From positions 62,001 through 126,000 of IMG/VR virus record IMGVR_UViG_3300009506_000003: a DNA stretch of 64,000 nt; one strand, written 5' to 3'. Numbering within the stretch: position 1 is the stretch's first letter; each line of letters starts with the position of its first letter. The DNA is from a virus. Below, in pieces: positions 10,088 to 38,113 of this stretch. The notes beneath the pieces were generated by a model. That model was given only the letters and a program-made list of their open reading frames with translations, was not told where the DNA came from and searched no databases. A program made the position numbers and the translations under genes.

Positions 10088-13000
10088 TTACGTCTCCTGA
10101 GCCACCGGGTTGCTCTGTTTGACCTTCATCGCCTCGTCTTTGATTTTGTCTCCCAGGACAGAGCCTACCGCAAACACGAACCGCTCGTTGGCGGCGGCGT
10201 ACTTGGTCAACATGTCCGTCAAGCTCTGGTTCTGAGACTTCCGGGCTCCGGGACCTTCACCCAACGCGGCGCCTGATACACCACGAAGCATGTCCTTGAG
10301 CTCTCCCACGTCTCTGCCCTTGATGCCTCCCTTCAGGAGCTCGTTCAACCTCTCCTGATCCACCCCAGTGAAGAGGTCCACTCCTCCTGCGCGCATCCGC
10401 TGGCGGAACTTGCGGACACCGGCCTCGTCCATCTCCCCCATCTGCTCGATGAGGCCGAGACGACCTGCCTGCCGACCTACCTCTCCCGCGCGGCCTTGCA
10501 GAAGGAGGTCGATCTCTTTCTGGCTCAAGTCTCCGCTTTTGGCCACTTCCCCCAAGAGCTGACGACCGCCTGTGAGGTCCTCTTTGGCAAACGCCTGACG
10601 AGCTCGCTCGAGCGTGGAGCGGAGGCCTTCGTCCTTGATCCCCTGAATGCCTGTGATTGGACCCTGCGACTTCGCAACGTCCCGCATCCGGGTCTTCTTT
10701 TCCTTCCACATCTGGGCCTGCTGAACAGCACTACTCGTGCCCAGCTCTTTCGCCAAGGCATCCTTGGTGTCCTGGCTGGAGCCCTGCAGAAGCTCCATGA
10801 CCCTCTTTGCGTTCGTGTCCCCTCTGTTGGCAGCCTCGGTGAATCGATTCCCCTCTGCCGCCTTGCCACTGATGTAGTCGGAAATGTCCTGAGGGGAGAA
10901 CTCCTCTGATGACAGGATGCCAGCCCATTCGTCTTCCGAAATCTGCTCGCCGGCAGCCATACCTCCAGCCACACCCAACCCGAGGCCTCCGAGGATGCCA
11001 CCTACGATTCCGCCGGCGACGGTACCGAGCACAGGTACCACAGAGCCGATAACGGCCCCCATGGCTGCACCGGCGACCGCCCCGCCTATCGCCCCACCTG
11101 CTGTGGAGACCATGCCCTCGCTGATGTCTGCGAGCTTGCCAAGATTCTCCTCGTGGATCTTGTCCAGGTCGCCTTCGGTCATGACGCCAACCTCGCGCGC
11201 CATCCGGTCATAGTCGACGGCCAGGTCGCTCTGCTTGTACTTGAGCTCGCCCTGGGCGACGGCCAAGACGTCCAGCTTGCCCTCCATCGTGCCCTCACCT
11301 CCAGGAGTACCCTTGGTGAGCTCACGCATTGCCGCTCGAGCCTCGCTGTCGCCCTCCAGCATGCGAAGCACTTCTCTTCCGTACTCCCGAGGGCTGGCGT
11401 CTTTAGCATTCTGCAAGCGGTCTCGAGAGTCCTTGCTGTTGAACATTTCCCTGACCCGGCGTTTGACCGTGTCCATCGCTTGGCGCTTCTTTTGAGTCTC
11501 CCCACCCAGCAGGCCGCCCATCGTGGCGTCCATGCTGCGCATCATAGTGCGACGAGAGATTCGACGAACATCCTCCGACTTGGCGCTCCTGCCTCCCCCC
11601 AGGTTGACCTCAGACGCTCCCGCCGGGCCAGCCTGTGTCTCCAACCCGGCCTCAACCAAAGACCGAGCTCGAGGCGTCATCATGGAGAGCTCGTAGCCGC
11701 TCATGCCCATCGCTCCCCCGCCCATCCAAGCCAAGGGGTCTATTCCCACGGCGCCCATCGTTGCGCCGGCGAGCCCGCCAAGAGCAGTACCCCACGGCCC
11801 AATCATGGAGCCGGCAGCGGCACCCATCGCGCCGTATCCTGCTACGCGGCCGAGGAAACCGGCACCTTGCTCTCTCATCTGCATCGTCATGTTGCCGAGG
11901 ATGCCCGGGTCTACAAAGCCCTGTCCCACGTTTGCAGCACCCAACATCTGAGGGGTGATCTCTCTGTCCATGGCACCAGCAGCAGCCATGTGCATCTGCT
12001 GACGCATGCTGAGCTTTGGCAGTCGACGGGTACGTCCTGTCATCCACCTTCCGACCTTGTCCATTGTGGACCCGATCTCCGTGGCGAGGTTCTCCCCAAG
12101 CTCCTGCAAGGGACGCTCTACTGCTTCCTCCCACACGCTGCCAACCGCATCCTTGAATCCCGCCCAGCTCTGGTTCCTTCGCTGCTCGATGTTCCTGAAA
12201 CTGTCCTCGAGCGCAGCCTCCATGCGGCGCTCGTTGTCGGCGGTGATGCGAGGCATCTCCTGAATCATCTTCTGGATGACGTCCGCTTGGCGCTGGTTCG
12301 CTCCAGTCAGGAGCTGAATGAACCTGTTCTGAATGGGCTCCGACGCAGCACCGTACCCCGCACGGTTCATGGCCTGTTGGATGCCCATCGACATAGCCTC
12401 GACGCCACCCTGCGCGGCCATGCTCTGACCCATCTGGTCTGCACGATTGAAGAACGACACGGCCAAGGACTTGTTGCTGACTCGTTTTCGCCCCTGCGCC
12501 TGAAGCTGACCGATGGTTACCTCCCCCCTTTGGAACTTCGCAAGGAGCTCCGGGTCCATCCGTCCTGTGAATTGGCCTCCCTCGATCTCTCCTAAACCAG
12601 CCATCATGAGCCGGCCCATAGCGGTCTGACCCATTCCGGACATGACCTGCTGCAAGGAACCAGCAACCATCTGACGACCTTCAGCGCCGGTGACACCTCC
12701 AGTGAAGTTTCGAATGTCTTCTCGACTCAAGACGCCTGTGTGAACAGCACCAGACACCTGAGTGAATAGCTCTCTGCCCAAGCGTGCCCCAGCTCGGAGC
12801 GTGCCTCCCATCGCGTGGGACATCTGCGCTCCGGTCTGCATCGCACCCATCAGGGCTGCTCCGCCTCCGGGCCCCGCAGCTTTTCCTGCTACCGCAGTAC
12901 CCATGACGTCGGCCGCTGACCACAGCCCCATCTTGTTCAGGTTCTGGACGAGGGGCATCGCCTCGTCGAGGGTAGTACCAAGGATCTGAGCCACGGCCTT

Positions 13001-13825
13001 GGTCTTCCCAACGATGTCTCTGAATCGTCGTTTGAACTGATTGACGTCACCGACACCCTCGAGCATTCCAGATTGACCAGCTCGGTCCATTAGGCGGCGC
13101 ATGTCCTGCATGCTGGTCATCACGTCCTCACCTGCCATCTCGTGCAAGAATGACGTGACGTTCTTGATCATTCCTCTGCCAGGCCCGCCACCCATTCCTG
13201 CGCCACCTTGTCCCCATTGAGGCTCGAAGTACTGCGTCGCCATGCGACCAACGTCTTTGACGTTCTGCGCACCTTGAAAGATGTTCGTCCCAACAGTCTC
13301 GATAGCCTTGCCAGCGATGTAGTAGGGGATCGCAGCAGCGGCAGCGCCAGCCAAACCTCCAGCAAGTACACCCGCCCCCGCTCGCAGTCCTCCGGAAGCG
13401 AACGCGCGCCCAACGTTGCCGAAGCCGTGCATGAGGCCCATGCCAGACTCTCCGGCCATTACGCCCATGCGGCCTATTCCAGTGGCGGACGATACACCTG
13501 TACCAGCTCCGAACGCTCTACTGATCCCCGTGAATGGATCCAACAGACCGAGCGGGTTCCGGTACCCGAGCAGACCTGCCGCCATGGTGCCGCCGGCGGC
13601 GATACCTGGAAGAGCCATGCCGAGCCCGCCAGTGATGCGAGCTCCCATGTTGGGATCAAATGGCTCAGACACTCGGTAGGACGGAGAGGGGTACGGGTTC
13701 TGCATCTGAGGGGCAGGAGCCATAGCGTAGCCGCCTCCCACTGCCTGGGAGAACGCATGCTGATTGGCGAACATCACTTGCTGTCCACCAACCAGACCTG
13801 ACACCTGCTCGCTCGTAAACGGCAT
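10088..13825 (-). CDS. Tape measure protein
   Basis: 1,245 aa, the longest gene. The ATG at 13825 follows GGAGG; a TTG one codon earlier is less likely. The protein is Gly/Ala/Met-rich with hydrophobic blocks at residues about 70-190, 640-720 and 930-990 and long amphipathic helices rich in Q, M and R, typical of tape measures. At about 0.15 nm per residue it would specify a tail near 190 nm. It precedes tail and hub genes, the usual order. Confidence 0.85.
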   Translation of the reverse strand: MPFTSEQVSGLVGGQQVMFANQHAFSQAVGGGYAMAPAPQMQNPYPSPSYRVSEPFDPNMGARITGGLGMALPGIAAGGTMAAGLLGYRNPLGLLDPFTGISRAFGAGTGVSSATGIGRMGVMAGESGMGLMHGFGNVGRAFASGGLRAGAGVLAGGLAGAAAAAIPYYIAGKAIETVGTNIFQGAQNVKDVGRMATQYFEPQWGQGGAGMGGGPGRGMIKNVTSFLHEMAGEDVMTSMQDMRRLMDRAGQSGMLEGVGDVNQFKRRFRDIVGKTKAVAQILGTTLDEAMPLVQNLNKMGLWSAADVMGTAVAGKAAGPGGGAALMGAMQTGAQMSHAMGGTLRAGARLGRELFTQVSGAVHTGVLSREDIRNFTGGVTGAEGRQMVAGSLQQVMSGMGQTAMGRLMMAGLGEIEGGQFTGRMDPELLAKFQRGEVTIGQLQAQGRKRVSNKSLAVSFFNRADQMGQSMAAQGGVEAMSMGIQQAMNRAGYGAASEPIQNRFIQLLTGANQRQADVIQKMIQEMPRITADNERRMEAALEDSFRNIEQRRNQSWAGFKDAVGSVWEEAVERPLQELGENLATEIGSTMDKVGRWMTGRTRRLPKLSMRQQMHMAAAGAMDREITPQMLGAANVGQGFVDPGILGNMTMQMREQGAGFLGRVAGYGAMGAAAGSMIGPWGTALGGLAGATMGAVGIDPLAWMGGGAMGMSGYELSMMTPRARSLVEAGLETQAGPAGASEVNLGGGRSAKSEDVRRISRRTMMRSMDATMGGLLGGETQKKRQAMDTVKRRVREMFNSKDSRDRLQNAKDASPREYGREVLRMLEGDSEARAAMRELTKGTPGGEGTMEGKLDVLAVAQGELKYKQSDLAVDYDRMAREVGVMTEGDLDKIHEENLGKLADISEGMVSTAGGAIGGAVAGAAMGAVIGSVVPVLGTVAGGIVGGILGGLGLGVAGGMAAGEQISEDEWAGILSSEEFSPQDISDYISGKAAEGNRFTEAANRGDTNAKRVMELLQGSSQDTKDALAKELGTSSAVQQAQMWKEKKTRMRDVAKSQGPITGIQGIKDEGLRSTLERARQAFAKEDLTGGRQLLGEVAKSGDLSQKEIDLLLQGRAGEVGRQAGRLGLIEQMGEMDEAGVRKFRQRMRAGGVDLFTGVDQERLNELLKGGIKGRDVGELKDMLRGVSGAALGEGPGARKSQNQSLTDMLTKYAAANERFVFAVGSVLGDKIKDEAMKVKQSNPVAQET

Positions 13826-14631: not shown

Positions 14632-14895
14632 ATGGCGCAAGAGAAAAGAAGAGCCAAGCCGAAAAAGCCTGGTCGAAGCAGGATCCCCGAGTACCTCGTC
14701 CACTGTGGCGACGCTTGGAACCTCTTCGCGTACGGAGGAAAGTGGAAGGTCACCCACCTGACGAACAAGCTCAACGAGCTGCTCGCCAGAATCGACTTCT
14801 TGCCGGGGCTAGTGCTCCGGGATGAAGAAGGCAAGTTGCTGAAACCTGTCCTTCAGGTACACCTCGTGCCTGTGGACACACCGGAGGAAAGATGA
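14632..14895 (+). CDS. Small basic hypothetical protein
   Basis: 87 aa from ATG 14632 (MAQEKRRAKPKKPG), with a basic N-terminus followed by a compact domain (YLVHCGDAWNLFAYGGKWKV). It ends in an ATGA overlap with the next gene. First gene of a rightward operon of small proteins that includes the DNA ligase. No family recognised. Confidence 0.75.
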   Translation: MAQEKRRAKPKKPGRSRIPEYLVHCGDAWNLFAYGGKWKVTHLTNKLNELLARIDFLPGLVLRDEEGKLLKPVLQVHLVPVDTPEER

Positions 14896-15233
14896 GCGTA
14901 CCAAAAACTGGACCTGGCTCAGTCATAGAACCATTGGTTCTAAACGGGCCCATGATGAAGTGCCCGAAGTGTGAAGGAACCACCAACCTGTGGAGGAACG
15001 AGACAGTCCCCCGCATGATTGGTATCAAGCCCCTGCCCGAAGGTGGATTCGATTGGGACAACGAAGCCCGAGACGAGTTCATCGACGAGGCCAGCGTGAA
15101 GAGCTCAGAGGAGCCTGAGTTCTTCTGCCGCGATTGTGATGTCTACTTTGAGGCTCCAGAGATCGCTGAAATGGACGGCAATGCCGACCGGAAAGGACAC
15201 GACGGACATGCGCAGGTTCATCAAGGAGCCTAA
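14892..15233 (+). CDS. Zinc-ribbon protein
   Basis: 113 aa. CPKC at about residue 24 and CRDC at about residue 79 form a split zinc ribbon with an acidic insert. The start overlaps the upstream stop (ATGA). The C-terminal part overlaps the ligase start by up to 50 bases. Function unknown; coupling suggests co-expression with the ligase. Confidence 0.75.
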   Translation: MSVPKTGPGSVIEPLVLNGPMMKCPKCEGTTNLWRNETVPRMIGIKPLPEGGFDWDNEARDEFIDEASVKSSEEPEFFCRDCDVYFEAPEIAEMDGNADRKGHDGHAQVHQGA

Positions 15234-16620
15234 GGGCAAGGCCGCCCAAATCTGGGAGATCGTGGTGGCAAAGAACACGGTCTCCATCATGCACGGCCAG
15301 CTCGGCGGGAAGATGCAGGACACCTTGCAGGAGTTCGAGGGGAAGAACCTCAGCAAGAAGAACGAGAAGAGCCCAGAGCAAGTGGCTCAGGAATGGGCGG
15401 AGAACCAGATCAAGAAGAAGGTGAAGCAGGGCTACTTCGAGGTGAACATCAGTACGGGGAAGCCCATCGGAGACAAGGCCGCCGGTGACATCCTCACGTA
15501 CGTCCAGCCGCCGACCAACTTCACCATCTACAAGCCGCAGCACAGTCTCTCGAAAGCGCTCGAAAAGGCGCTGAGGGGCGGGCAAGCACTCGTCGGGAGA
15601 AAGCGGGACGGGTACATGCACTACCTGGTCACGGATGAGCACGGCTACACGAGGCTGTTCTCATCGAAGTGGGAGCCGGCCCACAACCTGGAGATGAAGG
15701 AGATGGTCCCTTGGATGGAACGGTACCCTCACATCGAGAGGGACGTTCAGAGACTCGGCTTGCCGCCGATGTCCATCGTCGTAGGGGAACTCTGCGCATC
15801 TCCAGAGTGCGGAAGAGACTCTTCTGGGTTCACCATAGACGACTTCGAGTACGTTGGAGGGGTCATCAAGTCCCTGACCCCCAGGGCACTCGACATGCAG
15901 CAAGAGCAAGGCCGACTCGAGTTCTGCATTTGGGACATCGCCATCTGGGGAGGGGAGCCCTACGCGAAAGAGATGACCGTCGGCGCTCGGTATGACCACA
16001 TCTACCACCTGATTGGTAGGACTGGGGTGGAGTTCATCACCATGCCTGAGCTGATCGAGCTCTACAACGACGGGTTCAAGGTCACGTCCCACCGTGCCGG
16101 CGAGCTCGAGCTCGAGTACGACCATGAGGATGTGGTCCATGACTTGCTCGAGTATGCAAAGAATCTCGGGTGGGAAGGTTACGTAGTGGTCAATCCCCAC
16201 GAGAAGTACGGGGACAAGGCGTTCAACTTCCGAGGCAAGAACGACCGTCCGGTCTGTTGCGGGAAGCTGAAGCCCGACTACGAGGCTGACTTCGTGGTCA
16301 TGTGGGATCCCGACAACAAGATCGGGGAGTGGGGCACCGGAAAGAACAAGAAGGGCGTCGGGTCTGTCCAGGCGTACCTCTACGACGACAATCTCTGCGA
16401 GCTCGTCCCGGTCAGCAAGGTTGGTGGGGGCATCACCGACGAGCAGTGCAAGAAGTTCGCGGATCCAAAGCTGTACCCCATGGTGTGGCAGGTCGTGTTC
16501 AAAGGATGGACCGCCAAGGGTTCTCTCCGTCATCCGTCCTTGTTCCGAGTGCGAGATGACAAGAAGCCAGAAGAATGCAGCATTGCCCAGAACCCAAGAT
16601 GGAGAGGAGCCGAGCAATGA
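15208..16620 (+). CDS. ATP-dependent DNA ligase with N-terminal WGR domain
   Basis: 470 aa from ATG 15208 (AGGA 9 bases upstream; ATG 15181 is an alternative). Residues 1-80 fit a WGR domain (AQIWEIVV, MHGQLGGKMQDTLQEF), a module known from PARPs and some ligases that binds DNA ends. Then come the nucleotidyltransferase motifs: KRDG at 132-135 (AMP-accepting lysine K132), VVGEL near 192, EGYVVV at 323-328 and KLKP at 353. It seals nicks with ATP in phage replication and recombination. The following gene starts inside its stop (ATGA). Confidence 0.9.
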   Translation: MRRFIKEPKGKAAQIWEIVVAKNTVSIMHGQLGGKMQDTLQEFEGKNLSKKNEKSPEQVAQEWAENQIKKKVKQGYFEVNISTGKPIGDKAAGDILTYVQPPTNFTIYKPQHSLSKALEKALRGGQALVGRKRDGYMHYLVTDEHGYTRLFSSKWEPAHNLEMKEMVPWMERYPHIERDVQRLGLPPMSIVVGELCASPECGRDSSGFTIDDFEYVGGVIKSLTPRALDMQQEQGRLEFCIWDIAIWGGEPYAKEMTVGARYDHIYHLIGRTGVEFITMPELIELYNDGFKVTSHRAGELELEYDHEDVVHDLLEYAKNLGWEGYVVVNPHEKYGDKAFNFRGKNDRPVCCGKLKPDYEADFVVMWDPDNKIGEWGTGKNKKGVGSVQAYLYDDNLCELVPVSKVGGGITDEQCKKFADPKLYPMVWQVVFKGWTAKGSLRHPSLFRVRDDKKPEECSIAQNPRWRGAEQ

Positions 16621-16886
16621 AGCAGAGACGATTCATTCTCTGGGACTGCAAGGACAACTACCGACCGATGACTGATGAGGAAGGGAACCAAATCATCAGC
16701 GATGGGGTTCTCGGGAGGTTGTCCTTGGACAATGTCTACCTGACCACCTACGCCCGCTACCCAGGTGAGCTCCGGCCGGCTGACCTCGAGGTCGGGGAGT
16801 GCATCAAGGCTGTAGGGTTTCACCTGAGCGGGGAGCATGGGGTCTACGACATCTACCGCGTCGAGGACGCATCGGAGGCCCCATGA
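16617..16886 (+). CDS. Small hypothetical protein after ligase
   Basis: 89 aa; ATG at 16617 overlaps the ligase TGA. Sequence begins MKQRRFILWDCKDNYRP and looks mixed alpha/beta with a VGECIKAVGFHLS strand pair. No family recognised. Co-translated with the ligase. Confidence 0.75.
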   Translation: MKQRRFILWDCKDNYRPMTDEEGNQIISDGVLGRLSLDNVYLTTYARYPGELRPADLEVGECIKAVGFHLSGEHGVYDIYRVEDASEAP

Positions 16887-16954
16887 GCTACTGCATGCCG
16901 ATGGGGCGCGGATGTCCGTGTCCAGAGTGTGAAGAGAGGGAGTCTGATGATTGA
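16883..16954 (+). CDS. Cysteine-rich micro-protein
   Basis: 23 codons: MSYCMPMGRGCPCPECEERE plus SDD. Four cysteines (C, then C-P-C-P-E-C) could bind one metal ion. It overlaps the stop of the gene before (ATGA) and the start of the gene after, so it is positioned like a genuine coupled gene despite its size. Confidence 0.55.
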   Translation: MSYCMPMGRGCPCPECEERESDD

Positions 16955-17195
16955 CTACATCACTGAGTTCAAGATGAACCAGTCACGAGGACACCAACTG
17001 AAGTACCGGGACATCAACGACCCAGACTTCTCGAAAGAGTGGGGGCGTCCTGAAGCCATCATCCCCGACAAGGAAGTGACTTTGGAGCTCCACCTTCACC
17101 TCATCTACGACGCGGAGCACTCCCACTTGGTGAGGGACCTCACGGTGGCAGTGAGCAAAATCAACCAGGCTATCGCCCAGGAGAGAGGACAATGA
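16947..17195 (+). CDS. Small hypothetical protein
   Basis: 82 aa from ATG 16947, with GAGGGAG upstream. Contains VTLELHLHLIYDAEHSHLV, a strand followed by a helix, ending in a hydrophilic helix. ATGA coupling to the MazG-like gene. No family recognised. Confidence 0.75.
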   Translation: MIDYITEFKMNQSRGHQLKYRDINDPDFSKEWGRPEAIIPDKEVTLELHLHLIYDAEHSHLVRDLTVAVSKINQAIAQERGQ

Positions 17196-17557
17196 GCTAC
17201 TTCGAAGACGTAGTGCGCTGGCATCGAAAAGTGGGGCACCCGGTCGCCCCCAACATTATGGCCGCGCAAGAGGCGATGCACGGCGGGCTCGGCTGGAAGT
17301 TGGTGGTGGAAGAGTTCAAGGAGCTCTGCGATGCCACCAACATCGAGGAGTACGCCGATGCTATCGGTGACCTCATCTGGGTGCTCTGCGGCGACGCCGC
17401 ACGGAAAGGAATCCCGCTGGACCGAGTCTGGGCTGAGATCCGAAGAGCCAACTTCGACAAGCTGGGCGGGCCTGTCAGAGAGGACGGCAAGATTCTGAAA
17501 CCGGAAGGATGGCGCCCGCCCGACATCACTTCCGCATTGAAGGAGGAAATAGGATGA
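17192..17557 (+). CDS. MazG/PRA-PH-like all-alpha NTP pyrophosphohydrolase
   Basis: 121 aa. The EEFKEL helix and the AIGDLIWVL helix (E-x-x-E and D motifs that bind magnesium in this superfamily) are followed by RRANFDKLGG and PEGWRPPDI, the usual tail of phosphoribosyl-ATP-pyrophosphohydrolase-like phage proteins. Likely hydrolyses (d)NTPs or a nucleotide alarm signal. Which substrate cannot be told. Coupled by ATGA on both sides. Confidence 0.85.
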   Translation: MSYFEDVVRWHRKVGHPVAPNIMAAQEAMHGGLGWKLVVEEFKELCDATNIEEYADAIGDLIWVLCGDAARKGIPLDRVWAEIRRANFDKLGGPVREDGKILKPEGWRPPDITSALKEEIG

Positions 17558-17868
17558 GCAGGCCTTGGTCTGTGAACCCAGAGAACTGGGACCAGTGCAT
17601 CAACTACCTGTTCCCCAAGTGGCTCAAAGAGCGTGGCGGCATCGTAGTCTACGAGAACCATATGTTCGACAGCAGCAGCTTGGGAGACAAGACGTTCATG
17701 CCGGCCAGGTACATCGCAGAGGACAACCAGATGCACGACGCGCCAGAGGAGCACCGCCCGAACGGTGGGGTCCCCAGCATGCGTCAGCAGAAGGTAGACC
17801 ACATCCGCCTCGAGGACTTCTCGACGCTGGAAGACGCGCTGGAGTGCTTCGAGAAGGAGGCCGCATGA
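17554..17868 (+). CDS. Small conserved-type phage protein
   Basis: 104 aa, starts MSRPWSVNPENWDQCINYLF at an ATGA overlap. Aromatic, compact, ends in an acidic helix (EDFSTLEDALECFEKE). Function unknown. Confidence 0.75.
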   Translation: MSRPWSVNPENWDQCINYLFPKWLKERGGIVVYENHMFDSSSLGDKTFMPARYIAEDNQMHDAPEEHRPNGGVPSMRQQKVDHIRLEDFSTLEDALECFEKEAA

Positions 17869-18032
17869 AGCGCTGTGGGAAGTGCGAGAACTGCAAGAAG
17901 CTGGAGAGAGTAAAAGCTCGGGTCTTGGCCTGCGCCAACCCTCCCTTCAGCCATGCAGACGACGATGTCGTGAACTTGTGGAACACAGAGCTCAAACGAC
18001 TTCCATGTCAGGAGAATCCCAATGCTCAATGA
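17865..18032 (+). CDS. Small cysteine-rich zinc protein
   Basis: 55 aa. CGKCENCKKLERVK at the N-terminus, then LACANPPFSHADDDVVNLWN and LPC: five or six cysteines in a pattern I have seen in many small phage proteins. Metal binding likely, function unknown. ATG at 17865 overlaps the upstream TGA. Confidence 0.75.
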   Translation: MKRCGKCENCKKLERVKARVLACANPPFSHADDDVVNLWNTELKRLPCQENPNAQ

Positions 18033-18291
18033 CGCCCACCGGGCCAACTTCGAGACGCTCGAGCGGGCGTTCTCTGAGGGGGACGTATGCCTCCTCGAAT
18101 GCGTAGACAAGGATACTGGAAAACCGATCCCTGTCATTTGTGCAGTTCAACCTTCCGGGGACGAGGCAGCGCCGATTGAGTTTGTGCCGTTTGCCAAGTT
18201 GTTCCTGGGCAACCCTTACGAGGAGGTAGATCCCCCTCAGGAGATGGATACACATGAGCCAAGCGATTGTGCTGTCGGGGAACCCGAGTGA
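18022..18291 (+). CDS. Small conserved-type phage protein (DUF6117-like)
   Basis: 89 aa. MLNDAHRANFETLERAFSEG, LLECVDKDTGKPIPVICAV and FVPFAKLFLGNPYEEV follow the plan of a widespread short phage protein with no known function. Overlaps the neighbours on both sides by 11 and 38 bases. Confidence 0.75.
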   Translation: MLNDAHRANFETLERAFSEGDVCLLECVDKDTGKPIPVICAVQPSGDEAAPIEFVPFAKLFLGNPYEEVDPPQEMDTHEPSDCAVGEPE

Positions 18292-18748
18292 GGGTTTCAC
18301 AGCCGTCGGCCCATTTGACGACTTTGACGAGGCCGCCGACTGGGCCGACAGCCAGGTCACCATCGGCAACACGTGGGTGATGACCGTCGTCAGCCCCGCC
18401 AACTACGAGGAGTCGGAAGTGAGTGGGATGGATGCAGTCAAGAAGCTGATCACCGACCTCGGGCTCGATGAGCCTGGGGCCCCCAATCTGGACGGCCACA
18501 CAGAAGACGACCTGCGACAGTTCGTGCAGGTGGCTTCTCGTTGTCCTGGACAGCTCGGGGCTGTTCTCTTCGGGGAGCAGGAAGACCGTGAAGCCCGCCG
18601 GCGCGCGGTTGACACGCTCTGCACCTATGCCCAACTCCGACTGCAGGCGTCGAGCCTGCGTCTGGTGGGCCGCATCGACGAGGCTATGGCTGTGGAAGCC
18701 ACGATGGAGCGGCTCTACGGCATCCTGCCTGAATGGGGGCGGTGGTAG
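18254..18748 (+). CDS. Two-part small phage protein
   Basis: 164 aa. The first 50 residues (IVLSGNPSEGFTAVGPFDDF, then DSQVTIGNTWVMTVV) match a short domain often encoded alone in phages. The rest is helical and ends with a 45-residue helix pair (LQASSLRLVGRIDEAMAVEA). It looks like a fusion of two small genes: an in-frame ATG at the junction (about 18428) would start the second part. No function known. Confidence 0.7.
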   Translation: MSQAIVLSGNPSEGFTAVGPFDDFDEAADWADSQVTIGNTWVMTVVSPANYEESEVSGMDAVKKLITDLGLDEPGAPNLDGHTEDDLRQFVQVASRCPGQLGAVLFGEQEDREARRRAVDTLCTYAQLRLQASSLRLVGRIDEAMAVEATMERLYGILPEWGRW

Positions 18749-18822
18749 ACGACGTCTTCACCACCTCTCCGCCCGAACAACAAACACTGTGACACATTGA
18801 TGGGTATCGAAAGGAGACACCC

Positions 18823-19077
18823 ATGGTACACCCAGATCACGCAATGCTGGCAGACTCCAAAGAGCCACTGGTCGACGCCAAGAAGCTCGCCGAGTTTCTG
18901 TCAGTCCGCAAGGAGTACATCTATGTCTTGATGCGTCAGGGGATGCCCCACTACCGCATCGGGAACCGGAAGTACGTCCGCTTCGTCAAGTCGGAAGTAC
19001 TCGACTGGATCAAGACCAACCCCTTCCAAGAGGAGAACGATGCCACACCTGAAGGCGCAGATTCTCGGCCCCACTGA
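18823..19077 (+). CDS. Excisionase-type helix-turn-helix DNA-binding protein
   Basis: 84 aa. KKLAEFLSVRKEYIYVLMRQ, then PHYRIGNRKYVRFVKSEVLD is the HTH_17 (MerR-like winged helix) pattern of excisionases and AlpA-type regulators: helix, turn, recognition helix, then the basic wing. Start ATG 18823 after GAAAGGAG. In a phage without an integrase in view it is more likely a transcription regulator. Confidence 0.8.
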   Translation: MVHPDHAMLADSKEPLVDAKKLAEFLSVRKEYIYVLMRQGMPHYRIGNRKYVRFVKSEVLDWIKTNPFQEENDATPEGADSRPH

Positions 19078-19627
19078 TTGGTGGAAGGTCGAGACGACAA
19101 ACGGCACCTGCTGGGTGCTATGTGAGGACCTCGGCGTGCGAGAGGTCAAGGCAGAGGATCTTCTCGATCTCCTGCCGTCTGACAACTACGACACGCAGGA
19201 CATCATCCAGTGGGAGTACTACCGGGGGTACGGCGTCAGGCTGACAGAGCCGGACGAGACGCCCTGGGAGGTCTACGACTCGGAGTACGATGCCAAGATC
19301 TACTTCTCGGATGAGCACCAAGAGCTCTGCCCAATCTGTCTGACAGAGTTGGACGGGGATGGAACATGCGCAGCGTGCGTCCGAGACCTAGACCACGAGA
19401 CGTTTCTCGACGCGCTTGGTACCGTGCTTCAAGGAGTGACGGTCAACGAGATCCTGCACACTGTGCCGGGCATCTACGAGATCATCGCGGAGGAGTACAA
19501 CAACGAGGCCTTGAATCAGGCCTACGAGGACATGAGGCTACGGTATGAAGCCAAAGATCCGGATGCCCAAAGGGCAGACGAGGCCCAAGCCCGAGACGGT
19601 ACGGGCACAGGCCAAGCCCCAGCGTAA
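19040..19627 (+). CDS. Hypothetical protein with zinc knuckle
   Basis: 195 aa. Beta-rich N-terminal half (WWKVETTNGTCWVLCEDLGV), CPIC and CAAC knuckles at about residues 97-116, helical region after, and a low-complexity Ala/Gly/Asp tail. It overlaps the HTH gene by 38 bases and the next gene by 83 bases. Confidence 0.7.
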   Translation: MPHLKAQILGPTDWWKVETTNGTCWVLCEDLGVREVKAEDLLDLLPSDNYDTQDIIQWEYYRGYGVRLTEPDETPWEVYDSEYDAKIYFSDEHQELCPICLTELDGDGTCAACVRDLDHETFLDALGTVLQGVTVNEILHTVPGIYEIIAEEYNNEALNQAYEDMRLRYEAKDPDAQRADEAQARDGTGTGQAPA

Positions 19628-24727: not shown

Positions 24728-25078
24728 CTAGTTGTCGTATGGGAGGGCGAGGTCGAGCTCGTCTCCCTCGTCGAGAACCCCAATGAGGTCTCGCAGGTGC
24801 ATGAAGCAGTGGGCAATGCCCACCCGGTTGGCCTCTTTCAGGTGACCGCGAAAAACGACTCGATCTCCTGGGGCGATGGTTGGCTTGATGAACTTCACCT
24901 TGCCGTTTACCTCGTCGAAGTAGCCCTTGCCGACAGACAAGACTCGACCGACGACGTGGCCCAGCCGTTCGTAGAGATTGCCGTCAGGGATGTAGAGTCC
25001 GCTGTCGGTTCTCTTCTTCGGCGTCTCGGGCTTCACCAAAACCCAAGGGCCGTTAGCCCTCACTCGTTCGGCGTCCAT
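24728..25078 (-). CDS. Second, divergent GroES-like protein
   Basis: 116 aa. WVLVKPETPKKRTDSGLYIP, GHVVGRVLSVGKGYFD, APGDRVVFRGHLKEANRVGI and FMHLRDLIGVLDEGDEL follow the Cpn10 fold with a shorter mobile loop (DSGLYIPDGN) and an inserted strand (VNGKVKFIKPT). It overlaps the upstream gene by one base. It may replace GroES for a special client such as the capsid protein, as T4 gp31 does, or pair with the neighbour in one heptamer (both inferred). Confidence 0.85.
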   Translation of the reverse strand: MDAERVRANGPWVLVKPETPKKRTDSGLYIPDGNLYERLGHVVGRVLSVGKGYFDEVNGKVKFIKPTIAPGDRVVFRGHLKEANRVGIAHCFMHLRDLIGVLDEGDELDLALPYDN

Positions 25079-26527: not shown

Positions 26528-26718
26528 GTGACCTCCGGTGGCGGAGCACTCACAGGGTGCCTCACCGTCATGGTTTTTCCTGTAAGCAAGTCATGAAGTC
26601 CCGTGACGGCGGCCAACAAAGCGCACTTCGGCTTCCCACCTGCTATGTCCGGGCCACCTGAGTGAGCGATGCACTCCCCCTGACAGGTCCGGTCCTTGTC
26701 CAAAAAGCATTGTGCCAT
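26524..26718 (-). CDS. Small cysteine-containing protein
   Basis: 64 aa; CFLDKDRTCQGECIAH at the start has a metal-binding look, and CALL follows. Its start overlaps the end of the tail chaperone extension. Unknown function. Confidence 0.7.
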   Translation of the reverse strand: MAQCFLDKDRTCQGECIAHSGGPDIAGGKPKCALLAAVTGLHDLLTGKTMTVRHPVSAPPPEVT

Positions 26719-27158
26719 CAGATCCTCATGTGCCTACGTGTCTTCCTCATCGCCTCCGCCTTGCGTGTCCGCTCTTCGCTTCTACGCAACTGCGACTGCA
26801 ATCTCCGCACTCTCGAGTCGTTCGCCATCCAGAGCGGCTTGACACGGAATGCAACGTGAGAGGCCCACTGCTTGAGAGCAGCCTTGGCCAACTCGGACCT
26901 CTTGCCCTTCTCCGCCTCGAGGAAGGGGAACATCGTGTTCTTGTAGTTGAGGAGAGCTTTCTCGATGCCCTCCATATTGTCCTTCGCTGAGCCCACAACG
27001 GACGCGACGATGGCCTCCGTCTGGAACAGCTCGGCCTCCCGCCTCCGGGTAGCGATCAACAGGAAGATTGACTCCAGCAGACTTCCCGGCTCCGGAGGCG
27101 AAGTAGCCAGGTCGTAGAGCATGTGGGCTCGTGCCCATCCTGATGGAGTCTCTATCCA
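26718..27158 (-). CDS. Tail assembly chaperone, frameshift extension (GT-type)
   Basis: About 146 residues read only after a -1 shift from the upstream gene: the frame is open from the slippery site through WIETPSGWARAHMLYDLATS, a helical body (SLLESIFLLIATRRREAEL, NMEGIEKALLNYKNTMFPFL) to a basic end (KAEAMRKTRRHMRI). The only internal ATG (27122) has no ribosome site. Like lambda GT and analogues, the fused form would bind the tape measure while the short form coats it. Confidence 0.8.
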   Translation of the reverse strand, partial: WIETPSGWARAHMLYDLATSPPEPGSLLESIFLLIATRRREAELFQTEAIVASVVGSAKDNMEGIEKALLNYKNTMFPFLEAEKGKRSELAKAALKQWASHVAFRVKPLWMANDSRVRRLQSQLRRSEERTRKAEAMRKTRRHMRI

Positions 27159-28342
27159 TTTTTTAGGACATCCACCGTGAAGAGTTTGTCGACACGATCT
27201 TGGAACCAGATGGACTGCACCGAAAAGTCAGCCACCAACTGCACCGGGAACGACGCGATGTGGAACATCTTCTTCTCGAAGTCTTCCTTCACGATGTCCT
27301 CGGTCATCTTCCCGACATCTTTGCGATGGTCGGGTAGGTACTTCCCGTTGATGGCCACGATACCGCACGTCAAGCGGCAGGTGTTGACGAGCTCCTGCGT
27401 GTAGAGAGCGGAACCCGGGTAGTCGTAGATGTACTTCAAGATCCAGATGTTCTCCCTCTGGTTGAAAGTACGAAGGGTGACTGAGAGCTTCCCCGGGATG
27501 ATGGGGATTTCTTGCTGGATCTCTTTCTTCATGACCATGTCGGTGATGTCGAGATCCTTGAGACGCTTCTCGATTGCCTCTCGGCGCTCCTTGCTCATCA
27601 GGCCAGTACGGATGTCGGCAATGGTTGCCATGTCCATACCGTCCAACGGTGAGTCCGGCTCGAAGTCGAGCTCAGCCTCGGCGAGCTCGTCTCTTGTCTC
27701 CTCGGCCACGGACTTCTTGCTGCTGCCGGCGGTAGGGCCGGGCTCTTCCCCGCGGTTGTCCAGTGGTGGTGCTTCTTCATGCTGGGCGGCGTCAACGTTC
27801 TCTTGTGCCATTTTCAATGCCTGTACTGTCTCGGGTGAAAAGTTGGACCTCGCCTGCGCCATGTCGTTGGCCTGACGCAGGGAGATCGGACCATTTGTCT
27901 GACCTCGAGCCATTGCCTGGTTGCCCGGGTACGCCGACCCCACGCCTGTTGGAGGTTTGGGGTTCGGTTTCGGCTTCAAGTCAGGGGGCTCACGCATGTC
28001 CTCTGGCACGCTCTCAAAGAACTGAGGCTGTGCCATCCCTCCGTGGAGACCAGCGATGGCTTCCATCTTCTCGCTCGAGGGGGACTCCACATGGCCCAAT
28101 GGGGGAGCCTTGCCTTTCAGAGCAGAGGCCTTCTTCTTGTTGGCCACCCGCTGCTGGATGCGCGCCGCGTAGGACCGCGCGCCGGGGTCCGTGATCGGTT
28201 GGTTCACCTCAGGGTTGAACTCGTTGTCAGCTTCCATCCCCATGATCCTCTGAACGTCCGCGCTCGGGTTGAGCTCGGCGATCTCTTTCTTGGTGAGCGT
28301 CGGCTGTGTTCCAGTCCCGACTTTTGGCCTGTCTATCTTCAC
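27152..28342 (-). CDS. Tail assembly chaperone, short product (G-type)
   Basis: 396 aa from GTG 28342 behind AGGAGGGG. The first 240 residues are disordered, Pro/Gln-rich. The last 150 (MVMKKEIQQEIPIIPGKLSV, TLRTFNQRENIWILKYIYDY, NTCRLTCGIVAINGKYLPD) look like a tail-chaperone domain. It ends a few codons after a canonical slippery heptamer that leads into the next open frame. Upstream of the tape measure on the same strand, as usual for this gene pair, although here a reversed operon lies between. Confidence 0.75.
   Translation of the reverse strand: MKIDRPKVGTGTQPTLTKKEIAELNPSADVQRIMGMEADNEFNPEVNQPITDPGARSYAARIQQRVANKKKASALKGKAPPLGHVESPSSEKMEAIAGLHGGMAQPQFFESVPEDMREPPDLKPKPNPKPPTGVGSAYPGNQAMARGQTNGPISLRQANDMAQARSNFSPETVQALKMAQENVDAAQHEEAPPLDNRGEEPGPTAGSSKKSVAEETRDELAEAELDFEPDSPLDGMDMATIADIRTGLMSKERREAIEKRLKDLDITDMVMKKEIQQEIPIIPGKLSVTLRTFNQRENIWILKYIYDYPGSALYTQELVNTCRLTCGIVAINGKYLPDHRKDVGKMTEDIVKEDFEKKMFHIASFPVQLVADFSVQSIWFQDRVDKLFTVDVLKNG
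27158..27164 (-). other. Programmed -1 frameshift site A AAA AAT
   Basis: On the - strand the codons CTA AAA AAT GGA TAG give the heptamer A AAA AAT in the right phase. A -1 slip yields AAA AAA then TGG ATA GAG and enters the frame of 26718-27158, avoiding the TAG at 27152. This is the canonical tail chaperone arrangement. Confidence 0.8.
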
Positions 28343-28351
28343 TCGCCCCTC

Positions 28352-28696
28352 CTAGTTCCCTTCAGGTAGCTCATCGAATGCCATGTTCCAGTCTGGCTCC
28401 ACGAGCGTGTGTTTGCTGAATCCTCGTGGTACCGCAGATGGAGTCTCCGGACGCAGAGGGCTGTTAGTGATTGGCCAATGAATCTTGCACGGCCCGCAGT
28501 GAACATTCACACCAAGGCGATTTGACACAACACGGCCTTCCCGCCCGCACTTCGGGCAGAGCCGAGCCTTGTCGACGTTGGCGTCCAACTTCGAGACAGC
28601 TTCGAGTGGAGTGGTAGGTATTTCTGGAAGGCTCTCAGGGCCTGTCTTCGGCTTCGGCAGCCCAGTGGGCTTTTGCTTGATGGTCGGCTTAGTCAT
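28352..28696 (-). CDS. Zinc-ribbon protein
   Basis: 114 aa. Disordered Pro/Lys-rich start (KPTIKQKPTGLPKPKTGP), then LCPKCGREGRVVSNRLGV and HCGPCKIHWPI: a classic two-knuckle zinc ribbon. Ends in an acidic tail. Overlaps the upstream gene by 8 bases. May bind nucleic acid or a virion partner. Confidence 0.75.
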   Translation of the reverse strand: MTKPTIKQKPTGLPKPKTGPESLPEIPTTPLEAVSKLDANVDKARLCPKCGREGRVVSNRLGVNVHCGPCKIHWPITNSPLRPETPSAVPRGFSKHTLVEPDWNMAFDELPEGN

Positions 28697-34861: not shown

Positions 34862-34896
34862 GAGAGGCCGGGGAGAGATCCCCGGCCTTCTCTTTT
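34862..34896. terminator. Bidirectional terminator between convergent operons
   Basis: GAGAGGCCGGGGA-GAGA-TCCCCGGCCTTCTC, with TTTTAGCCC following on the + strand. It serves the + operon ending at 34859 and the - gene ending at 34895. Confidence 0.8.
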
Positions 34897-35776
34897 AGCC
34901 CTTCACGTCCTTCACTGCATCCCTCAACAACTTCTTGTCCTCGTTCTCCTTCTCGATCACCCTGTCCACGAGCTCCTGGTCCGTGTGGATCTCGAGCACG
35001 TCCTCAATAATGTCTCGCAGCGCTGTCGGGGGCAGAGCATCAACCTCCCACGAGCTGTGCCCGTACTTCTCGACGAAGGCTTTCGCCCGGCTATCTGATA
35101 GCTTCGTGGGATTGGGAGGAGGATTGTACTGCTGGACTTGGTCCATGGTCAGAGCCAGCTTCCGGACTTCAGCGTAGGAGCCGAACATGCTCAACCTGTC
35201 CTGGATGTCCCGAACCATGTCCTCCCCAGAGGGGTCGAGGTCGCCCAGGTAGAAAATGATCGCGCACTCGGACCCATCCTCTGCCATCTCTCCTTCGATG
35301 CGCTTGGCAGACTCGTACATCGCGCTCGAGCTCGAATACCCACGGTTGACCATGAGGGTGATGTGGAACTTCCTCGCGATGGGGGCAAGCACACCGGCGA
35401 GAGCATCTTTCTCCACCCAGAGCTCGACGTAGAACTCCTGCCCCTTCCTACGGGGTAGCCGATACGCCCCCAGGGCTCCTTCAACAAGAGTTCGGATGTT
35501 GGGAAACTGAGGCGGCATCTGAGGCTGACGCATCCGGTCTTCGATAGCGTCCCAATCGATGAGCCCAGCGAGACGCCCTTTCGAGATGATGCTGCCCAGG
35601 TTCTTGTACGACTTCTCTTCGTTTGGAATGAGAGCTTTGGACACGAACTGGTAGTAGAGCTGCCTGAGCGTCAGGCGCAAACCTTGCCGGCTGTAGCTGT
35701 AGATGATGTCGTTTGCCTCGTCGATACGAGTCTGAGACTCCGACGAGAACTTCGTCTTCTTGAAGCACTCCTTCAT
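34895..35776 (-). CDS. Stand-alone Toprim-domain protein (Spo11/TopoVI-A-like)
   Basis: 293 aa. N-terminal DNA-binding-type helices (LTLRQLYYQFVSKALIPNEE, IDWDAIEDRMRQP), then ELWVEKDALAGVL, VNRGYSSSSAMYESAKRI and IIFYLGDLDPSGEDM: the E...DLDPSG acidic motif of Toprim domains with the VEKxAL start. Related stand-alone proteins are common in prophages and resemble topoisomerase VI subunit A; a nuclease or DNA-processing role is likely. Preceded by a TCATAA promoter-like box on the - strand. Confidence 0.75.
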   Translation of the reverse strand: MKECFKKTKFSSESQTRIDEANDIIYSYSRQGLRLTLRQLYYQFVSKALIPNEEKSYKNLGSIISKGRLAGLIDWDAIEDRMRQPQMPPQFPNIRTLVEGALGAYRLPRRKGQEFYVELWVEKDALAGVLAPIARKFHITLMVNRGYSSSSAMYESAKRIEGEMAEDGSECAIIFYLGDLDPSGEDMVRDIQDRLSMFGSYAEVRKLALTMDQVQQYNPPPNPTKLSDSRAKAFVEKYGHSSWEVDALPPTALRDIIEDVLEIHTDQELVDRVIEKENEDKKLLRDAVKDVKG

Positions 35777-37480: not shown

Positions 37481-38113
37481 ATGTCGAATGTGAAGACGGT
37501 CCAGATGGACCCGCCGTGGCCCGAGCAGGGTGCAGGCAAGATCAAGCGTGGCGCCGACAGGCACTACAAGCTCATCAAGAGGCGAGAGGACATCTTGAAG
37601 GTCATTCTGCAGTCTGGTGTCTGGCCGGATTGGGAGAAGGACGAGAGTGCTCACCTCTACATGTGGGTCACGAACAACTACCTCGAGTGGGGACTGTGGC
37701 TCATGGATGCCTTGGGGTTCACCTACAAGACGAACGTCGTCTGGGTGAAGACCAAAGCCGACTGGCCCGACATCATCGACGAGCTCATCGACGAGAATGG
37801 TGGGCTCACTCTGAACCCGCTGACCTGGATGAAGATCTTGGCGGCGGCCATCCGTATCGGCATCGGCCAGTACTTCCGTGGCAGCCACGAGCTCTGCCTC
37901 TTCGGGGTGCGGGGCAAGGCCATGATGCCGAAGAAGGCCCTCCCTTCTGTCTTCCATGCTCCTCGAGAGAAGGGTGAGGACGGCAAGGAGAAGCACTCCA
38001 AGAAGCCGACCCGTGCGTACGAGATCATCGAGGCTACAAGCCCAGGACCTTACCTCGAGATCTTCGCACGGTCAGAACGCAAGAACTGGGCATCCTGGGG
38101 AAACGAAATCTGA
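37481..38113 (+). CDS. MT-A70 family adenine methyltransferase
   Basis: 210 aa from ATG 37481 (GGAG upstream). MDPPWPEQ at residues 9-16 holds the catalytic DPPW; SAHLYMWVTNNYLEWGLWLM and TYKTNVVWVKTK are core strands; GSHELCLFGVRGKA and ARSERKNWASWGNEI complete the MT-A70 pattern. It should methylate adenine N6 in DNA (or RNA), perhaps protecting phage DNA. It starts a run of coupled small genes leading to the tmRNA. Confidence 0.9.
   Translation: MSNVKTVQMDPPWPEQGAGKIKRGADRHYKLIKRREDILKVILQSGVWPDWEKDESAHLYMWVTNNYLEWGLWLMDALGFTYKTNVVWVKTKADWPDIIDELIDENGGLTLNPLTWMKILAAAIRIGIGQYFRGSHELCLFGVRGKAMMPKKALPSVFHAPREKGEDGKEKHSKKPTRAYEIIEATSPGPYLEIFARSERKNWASWGNEI

What the first reader, a model, noticed from the sequence alone, without database searches (positions are those of the whole stretch)
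26718..28342. Canonical -1 frameshift joins two tail assembly chaperone frames
The upstream frame ends CTA AAA AAT GGA TAG. The heptamer A AAA AAT is in the correct phase, and a -1 slip enters the next open frame, which lacks its own ribosome site. This is the G/GT arrangement conserved among long-tailed phages. Here the pair lies about 13 kb from the tape measure, with a reversed operon in between.
Basis: partly seen in the sequence, partly recalled or inferred. Interest (0 to 1): 0.7.

Follow-up and report, generated by a model that had tools for sequence, protein, structure and literature searches.

The report
Frameshifted phage tail-chaperone gene pair
A large uncultured phage makes a short and a long form of its probable tail-building helper protein because some ribosomes slip back one base at a seven-letter site; the same site recurs in about fifty distant relatives, so this known phage trick is very likely real here, in a protein family that the databases searched did not recognise.

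Summary
On the minus strand a 396-codon frame (28342-27152) ends CTA AAA AAT GGA TAG. The in-phase heptamer A AAA AAT (27164-27158) leads by a -1 slip into an open frame (27158-26718) with no ribosome site of its own.

Neither frame matches Pfam or PHROGs. Relatives exist in IMG/VR contigs, many of 100-200 kb. All 52 non-duplicate loci (window included) break at the same aligned codon and carry only A AAA AAT (20) or G GGA AAT (32). A tree needs about 9 switches between the two (at least 5 on well-supported branches). No relative is fused in frame. No conserved downstream RNA structure was found.

The zero-frame C-terminal domain models well (pLDDT 89). Its best solved match is HK97 tail assembly chaperone 2ob9 (Z 6.2). 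Its named top matches among predicted viral structures are the chaperones of phages Finch and G, both annotated as joined pairs just before the tape measure. A probable tape measure lies downstream on the same strand in 17 of 19 relatives, 6-38 kb away.

Verdict: a new, very divergent member of the known G/GT class. One correction: the junction should mostly read LKN-W, not LKK-W.

The parts
27152..28342 (-). Zero frame ('G'-like): 396 aa, GTG start, TAG stop one codon after the heptamer
   Evidence: conserved in relatives
28348..28353 (-). AGGAGG Shine-Dalgarno of the zero frame, 5 nt before the GTG
   Evidence: Sequence
27155..27634 (-). Chaperone-like folded domain (C-terminal 160 aa of the zero frame)
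   Evidence: Alignment A3; AlphaFold2 pLDDT 89.4, pTM 0.83; best solved match HK97 2ob9 Z 6.2; BFVD matches Finch and phage G chaperones
27635..28342 (-). N-terminal extension, Pro/Ala/Glu-rich, probably disordered (236 aa), with a short motif FSPETVQALKMA akin to LSxETVxGLxAL of relatives
   Evidence: Sequence; motif scan
27158..27164 (-). Slippery heptamer A AAA AAT, in phase with the zero frame (CTA AAA AAT)
26718..27158 (-). -1 frame extension ('T'-like), 146 aa from W, TGA stop; begins WIETPSGWARAHMLYD; predicted all helical
   Evidence: AlphaFold2 pLDDT 77, pTM 0.42
10088..13825 (-). Probable tape measure protein, 1245 aa, Ala/Gly-rich, no Cys, glycine-zipper segments near 910-950
   Evidence: downstream on the same strand as the pair in 17 of 19 relatives
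14632..19627 (+). Block of genes on the opposite strand between the pair and the tape measure; includes DNA ligase 15181-16620
   Evidence: a ligase on the strand opposite to the pair also lies downstream of it in L045, L052, L053, L057-L060

Best explanation
This is a G/GT-type tail assembly chaperone locus. Most ribosomes read the zero frame and stop at TAG, giving the 396-aa 'G' protein. A minority reach CTA AAA AAT with tRNA-Lys in the P site and tRNA-Asn in the A site, slip back one base so that both re-pair with AAA, and go on at TGG. This gives a 541-aa 'GT' protein (395 + 146 aa, junction ...VLKN-WIETPSG...). By analogy with lambda, many G copies and a few GT copies coat the tape measure protein, and the T part brings in the tail tube subunit; both leave before the tail is finished. 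Shown here: the two frames, the in-phase heptamer, its strict conservation, the coding of both frames across the junction, and the fold match of the G domain. Inferred: that the shift happens, its (probably low) rate, the binding partners, and the tape measure label of the 10088-13825 protein.
For: Conservation: a search keyed on GWA[RKV][AG][NHQ].. inside the -1 frame, not on the junction, returned 19 relatives; all 19 have an in-phase X XXY YYZ heptamer at the aligned codon. A wider search gave 52 non-duplicate loci with the window: 20 A AAA AAT, 32 G GGA AAT, nothing else; the zero-frame stop follows one Gly codon later in 51 and two codons later in one.

Synonymous constraint: the residue before the heptamer varies (Leu, Val, Ile, Ala), but its third base is always A before AAA and G before GGA, and the Gly codon is always GGA although GGA is 13% of Gly codons in these genes; product of the synonymous choices 10^-82.6, ignoring relatedness. 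On a tree built without the heptamer residues the heptamer type changes about 9 times, at least 5 on starred branches, always landing on another valid heptamer.

-1 frame: homology starts at the first residue W, before any possible start codon. Differences between pairs of relatives are commonest at third codon positions in each frame.

Fold: HK97 chaperone 2ob9 Z 6.2 over 95 residues, next chain 4.1; Finch chaperone E 7.5e-4 and phage G gp181/gp182 E 4e-3 and 7e-3, all probability 1.00. These two loci are annotated as joined chaperone pairs right before the tape measure; their own junctions read CTG GGA AAA CTG TAA and TTA AAA AAC TAG. Profile comparison with Finch gp46: E 7.8e-5.

Order: the tape measure candidate is downstream on the same strand in all 17 relatives where it was found.
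Against: No direct evidence of the fused protein. No conserved downstream stem-loop (three pairs, no compensatory change) and no clear upstream SD-like stimulator (24 of 52 against a control mean of 10 but a control range of 0-31). Z 6.2 is modest, and Foldseek itself gives 2ob9 only E 2.3. The hhalign probability against Finch gp46 is only 62%, and against phage G gp181 there is no sequence support. Sequence families give at most weak hints (Phage_TAC_18 E 0.14 and phrog_2792 tail assembly chaperone E 0.046, one member each). The -1 extension has no known fold match. The pair is not adjacent to the tape measure, unlike in Finch and phage G.
Confidence: 0.9

Rival explanations
1. The frameshift is real and conserved, but the protein is not a tail assembly chaperone; it is another virion or assembly factor that uses the same recoding trick.
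For: No Pfam or PHROG assignment; structural matches are modest; neighbours include UvsX and a GroES-like protein rather than a recognised tail tube gene; the tape measure is 6-38 kb away.
Against: The informative structural matches are all chaperones of this class, two of them annotated as joined pairs; gene order (pair upstream of the tape measure on the same strand) is kept in 17 of 17.
Confidence: 0.08
2. The second frame is translated by its own start: re-initiation at the ATG in AAATGG (27159) or at the ATG at 27122.
For: An ATG overlaps the end of the heptamer (AAATGG) in all relatives; the window has a 125-codon frame from it, and ATG 27122 is in the -1 frame.
Against: The ATG at 27159 lies in the third frame, whose reading ends after 5, 9 or 15 codons in six of the relatives examined. 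The in-frame ATG at codon 13 is Val in many relatives and has no SD in any. Re-initiation would not require NNA AAA / NNG GGA matching.
Confidence: 0.02
3. RNA polymerase slippage on the A6 run, rather than ribosomal slippage, joins the frames.
For: The window's site is A6.
Against: 32 of 52 relatives have G GGA AAT, which holds no run longer than three, yet the frames are joined at the same codon.
Confidence: 0.02
4. Assembly or sequencing error, or a pseudogene with a broken frame.
For: The record is a metagenome assembly.
Against: The same break at the same aligned codon in 52 non-duplicate loci; both frames under protein-level constraint.
Confidence: 0.005

Closest known systems
Lambda gpG/gpGT tail assembly chaperones (slip site G GGA AAG)
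   Same: -1 slip at an X XXY YYZ heptamer close to the end of the first frame; short and extended forms; conserved across relatives although sequences differ (review PMC5009743).
   Different: Slip codon here is AAT (Asn), not AAG; long N-terminal extension; the pair is kilobases from the tape measure; no detectable sequence match to known families.
Rhodococcus phage Finch gp46/gp47 (MG962366; record has tail sheath and baseplate J genes)
   Same: Fold match at probability 1.00; weak profile match E 7.8e-5; junction CTG GGA AAA CTG TAA, heptamer plus one codon plus stop, as here.
   Different: Directly before the tape measure; only a short acidic N-terminus; slip codon AAA.
Bacillus phage G gp181/gp182 (JN638751)
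   Same: Fold matches at probability 1.00; annotated joined tail assembly chaperone; junction TTA AAA AAC TAG.
   Different: Adjacent to the tape measure gp183; no sequence similarity detected.
HK97 tail assembly chaperone (solved structure 2ob9)
   Same: Best solved structural match, Z 6.2 over 95 residues.
   Different: 7% identity; about 107 residues in the solved chain, no long N-terminal extension.

Membership tests
G/GT frameshifted tail assembly chaperones | Two overlapping frames, the second in -1 phase and without its own start | tested here: met
   same in all relatives
G/GT frameshifted tail assembly chaperones | In-phase slippery heptamer near the end of the first frame, conserved in relatives | tested here: met
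   52 of 52 non-duplicate loci; repeated switches between two heptamers
G/GT frameshifted tail assembly chaperones | Fold of the first-frame product resembles known chaperones | tested here: met
   2ob9 Z 6.2; Finch and phage G chaperones. Modest scores
G/GT frameshifted tail assembly chaperones | Located just upstream of the tape measure gene | tested here: inconclusive
   Upstream and on the same strand in 17 of 17, but 6-38 kb away, not adjacent; tape measure label inferred
G/GT frameshifted tail assembly chaperones | Fused product made, at a low ratio to the short one | not testable with these tools
   Needs proteomics or a reporter assay
G/GT frameshifted tail assembly chaperones | Products bind tape measure and tail tube and are absent from the virion | not testable with these tools
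   Needs biochemistry
Any Pfam or PHROG tail assembly chaperone family | Significant profile match | tested here: not met
   None for the window proteins; best among relatives Phage_TAC_18 E 0.14 and phrog_2792 E 0.046

The most novel reading that the evidence does not exclude
A chaperone family outside the profile libraries searched, in large uncultured tailed phages, in which the slip site is held to just two states (A AAA AAT and G GGA AAT) because the last base must be T to keep an invariant Trp in the -1 frame. The family has also moved away from its tape measure gene and gained a long N-terminal extension with its own short conserved motif, which may take over partner recruitment now that the genes are apart.
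Probability: 0.4. Interest if true: 0.45.

Novelty: new member of a known kind. Interest (0 to 1): 0.35.

Why it matters
It extends the G/GT frameshift to a clade of large (many 100-210 kb) uncultured phages whose chaperones had no profile assignment, and gives annotators a simple signature (NNA-AAA-AAT-GGN-stop or NNG-GGA-AAT-GGN-stop, followed by a frame starting KW[LI]xTPxGWA). The repeated switch between two heptamers at one site is a natural experiment on what bacterial ribosomes accept as a -1 site with an Asn codon in the A site. It also suggests that chaperone and tape measure genes need not be neighbours.

Tried and rejected
Single-sequence searches for relatives found nothing, nor did the phage collection; relatives came only through the DNA polymerase and then profile searches.

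Profile searches of solved-structure sequences gave only chance hits. Fold search with the -1 extension gave nothing.

RNA structure: single-sequence folds gave z-scores of -0.7 to -0.8 in the window and a few lower values in GC-rich relatives; the alignment fold shows no shared structure, so no stimulatory structure is claimed.

SD-like upstream stimulator: not above the control range.

Re-initiation, polymerase slippage and assembly error were considered and rejected.

Literature: the library papers found describe G/GT frameshifts and their usual sites; a search for GGGAAAT with phage and frameshift found no relevant paper.

A second possible site, G GGA AAC near the end of the + strand gene 37481-38113, was checked: its -1 frame closes within a few codons, so it is chance.

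Full report
What was claimed.

Observation. The window is bases 62001-126000 of a 132,593-base IMG/VR virus record. On the minus strand, GTG at 28342 is preceded by AGGAGG, and the 396-codon frame ends GAT GTC CTA AAA AAT GGA TAG at 27152. The -1 frame is open from 27227 to 26718. Its first ATG (27122) lies 12 codons past the junction with no SD motif. Among called genes of the record, in-phase XXXYYYZ occurs at 90 of 37,620 codon steps, and A AAA AAT occurs only here.

Relatives. Neither frame matches PHROGs or Pfam, even at E 5, and single-sequence searches of viral contigs and phage records found nothing. The DNA polymerase led to 24 related loci; six of these records encode relatives of both frames, with the second frame aligned from its first residue and overlapping the first by four bases. 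A profile of the -1 frame, searched by the motif GWA[RKV][AG][NHQ][MV][LIM]Y, gave 19 loci, all with a heptamer in phase. A wider profile gave 56 viral loci and one locus on a contig of a Deltaproteobacteria (Myxococcota) bin.

The slip site. After removing near-copies, 52 loci remain, the window included: 20 have A AAA AAT and 32 have G GGA AAT. The preceding codon is CTG, TTG, CTA, GTG, ATA, TTA, GTA or GCA: the amino acid varies, the third base always matches. GGA is 13% of Gly codons in these genes and AAA 10% of Lys codons. The zero-frame stop follows the heptamer after one Gly codon in 51 and after two codons in one. On a protein tree that leaves out the heptamer residues, the heptamer type changes about nine times, five at least on well-supported branches. 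Each such change needs three neighbouring bases to change, and always ends in another valid site. This is what selection for tandem -1 slippage predicts, and it is not explained by protein constraint in the zero frame, which tolerates Lys or Gly. The final T is explained by the invariant Trp (TGG) in the -1 frame. No relative has the frames fused. The wider search used a pattern that includes the Lys and Trp codons of the -1 frame, so it favours AAR TGG; the first three bases of the heptamer were not selected for, and the narrower search did not involve the junction at all.

Other joining mechanisms. The ATG inside AAATGG is in the third frame, which closes after 5, 9 or 15 codons in six of the relatives examined; the in-frame ATG at codon 13 is Val in many relatives. 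Polymerase slippage needs a homopolymer, which G GGA AAT lacks. Between pairs of relatives, differences are commonest at third positions in each of the two frames.

Stimulators. No shared RNA structure follows the site; single folds are unremarkable in the window. SD-like motifs upstream are not above the control range. The review PMC5009743 states that in E. [quoted passage not shown] A low shift rate is therefore the likeliest here, but this is inference.

What the proteins are. The last 160 residues of the zero frame model with pLDDT 89.4 and pTM 0.83. The best solved match by VIA-align is 2ob9, the HK97 tail assembly chaperone, Z 6.2, rmsd 4.2 over 95 residues, next chain Z 4.1; Foldseek alone ranks it second with E 2.3. 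Among predicted viral structures the named matches near the top are the Rhodococcus phage Finch chaperone and Bacillus phage G gp181 and gp182, all at probability 1.00. In their records these are annotated as joined chaperone pairs directly before the tape measure. Finch's junction is CTG GGA AAA CTG TAA and phage G's is TTA AAA AAC TAG, the same layout as here. The profile of our domain aligns to Finch gp46 with E 7.8e-5, probability 62%. The -1 extension is modelled as helices at moderate confidence with no fold match.

Position. The 1245-aa protein at 13825-10088 is Ala/Gly-rich, without Cys, with glycine-zipper segments near residues 910-950. Its PHROG matches (tape measure, lysin and unknown families) fall on and near that stretch, so they may reflect composition; the label tape measure is an inference. 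Relatives of it occur in 17 of 19 records, always on the same strand as the pair and downstream, 6 to 38 kb away. The opposite-strand block in between (14632-19627), with a DNA ligase, has counterparts in several relatives.

Verdict. It is a new, highly divergent member of a known class, interesting mainly for the heptamer switching, the distance from the tape measure, and the size of the clade.

Noticed in passing
window 27635-28342 and relatives: The long N-terminal extension of the zero-frame protein carries a short motif (LSxETVxGLxAL type) roughly 190-235 residues before the C-terminus in 17 of 52 loci against 0.05 expected from shuffles; the window has a variant, FSPETVQALKMA.
   Followed up: partly
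L128: A relative of the -1 extension, with A AAA AAT, lies on a 17.6 kb contig binned with a Deltaproteobacteria (Myxococcota) genome; a possible hint at hosts of this phage clade.
   Followed up: no
window 24728-25078 (-): GroES-like co-chaperonin gene a few genes downstream of the pair (phrog_3188, E 2.6e-8).
   Followed up: no
window 34895-35776 (-): 293-aa protein matching phrog_6247, DNA topoisomerase, over its whole length (E 2.3e-86).
   Followed up: no
window 37481-38113 (+): Called gene has an in-phase G GGA AAC heptamer 9 bases before the end of its frame, but the -1 frame closes within a few codons: probably chance.
   Followed up: yes
window 15181-16620 (+) and relatives: A DNA ligase on the strand opposite to the chaperone pair lies downstream of it in several relatives too (L045, L052, L053, L057-L060), so the opposite-strand block is partly conserved.
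   Followed up: partly
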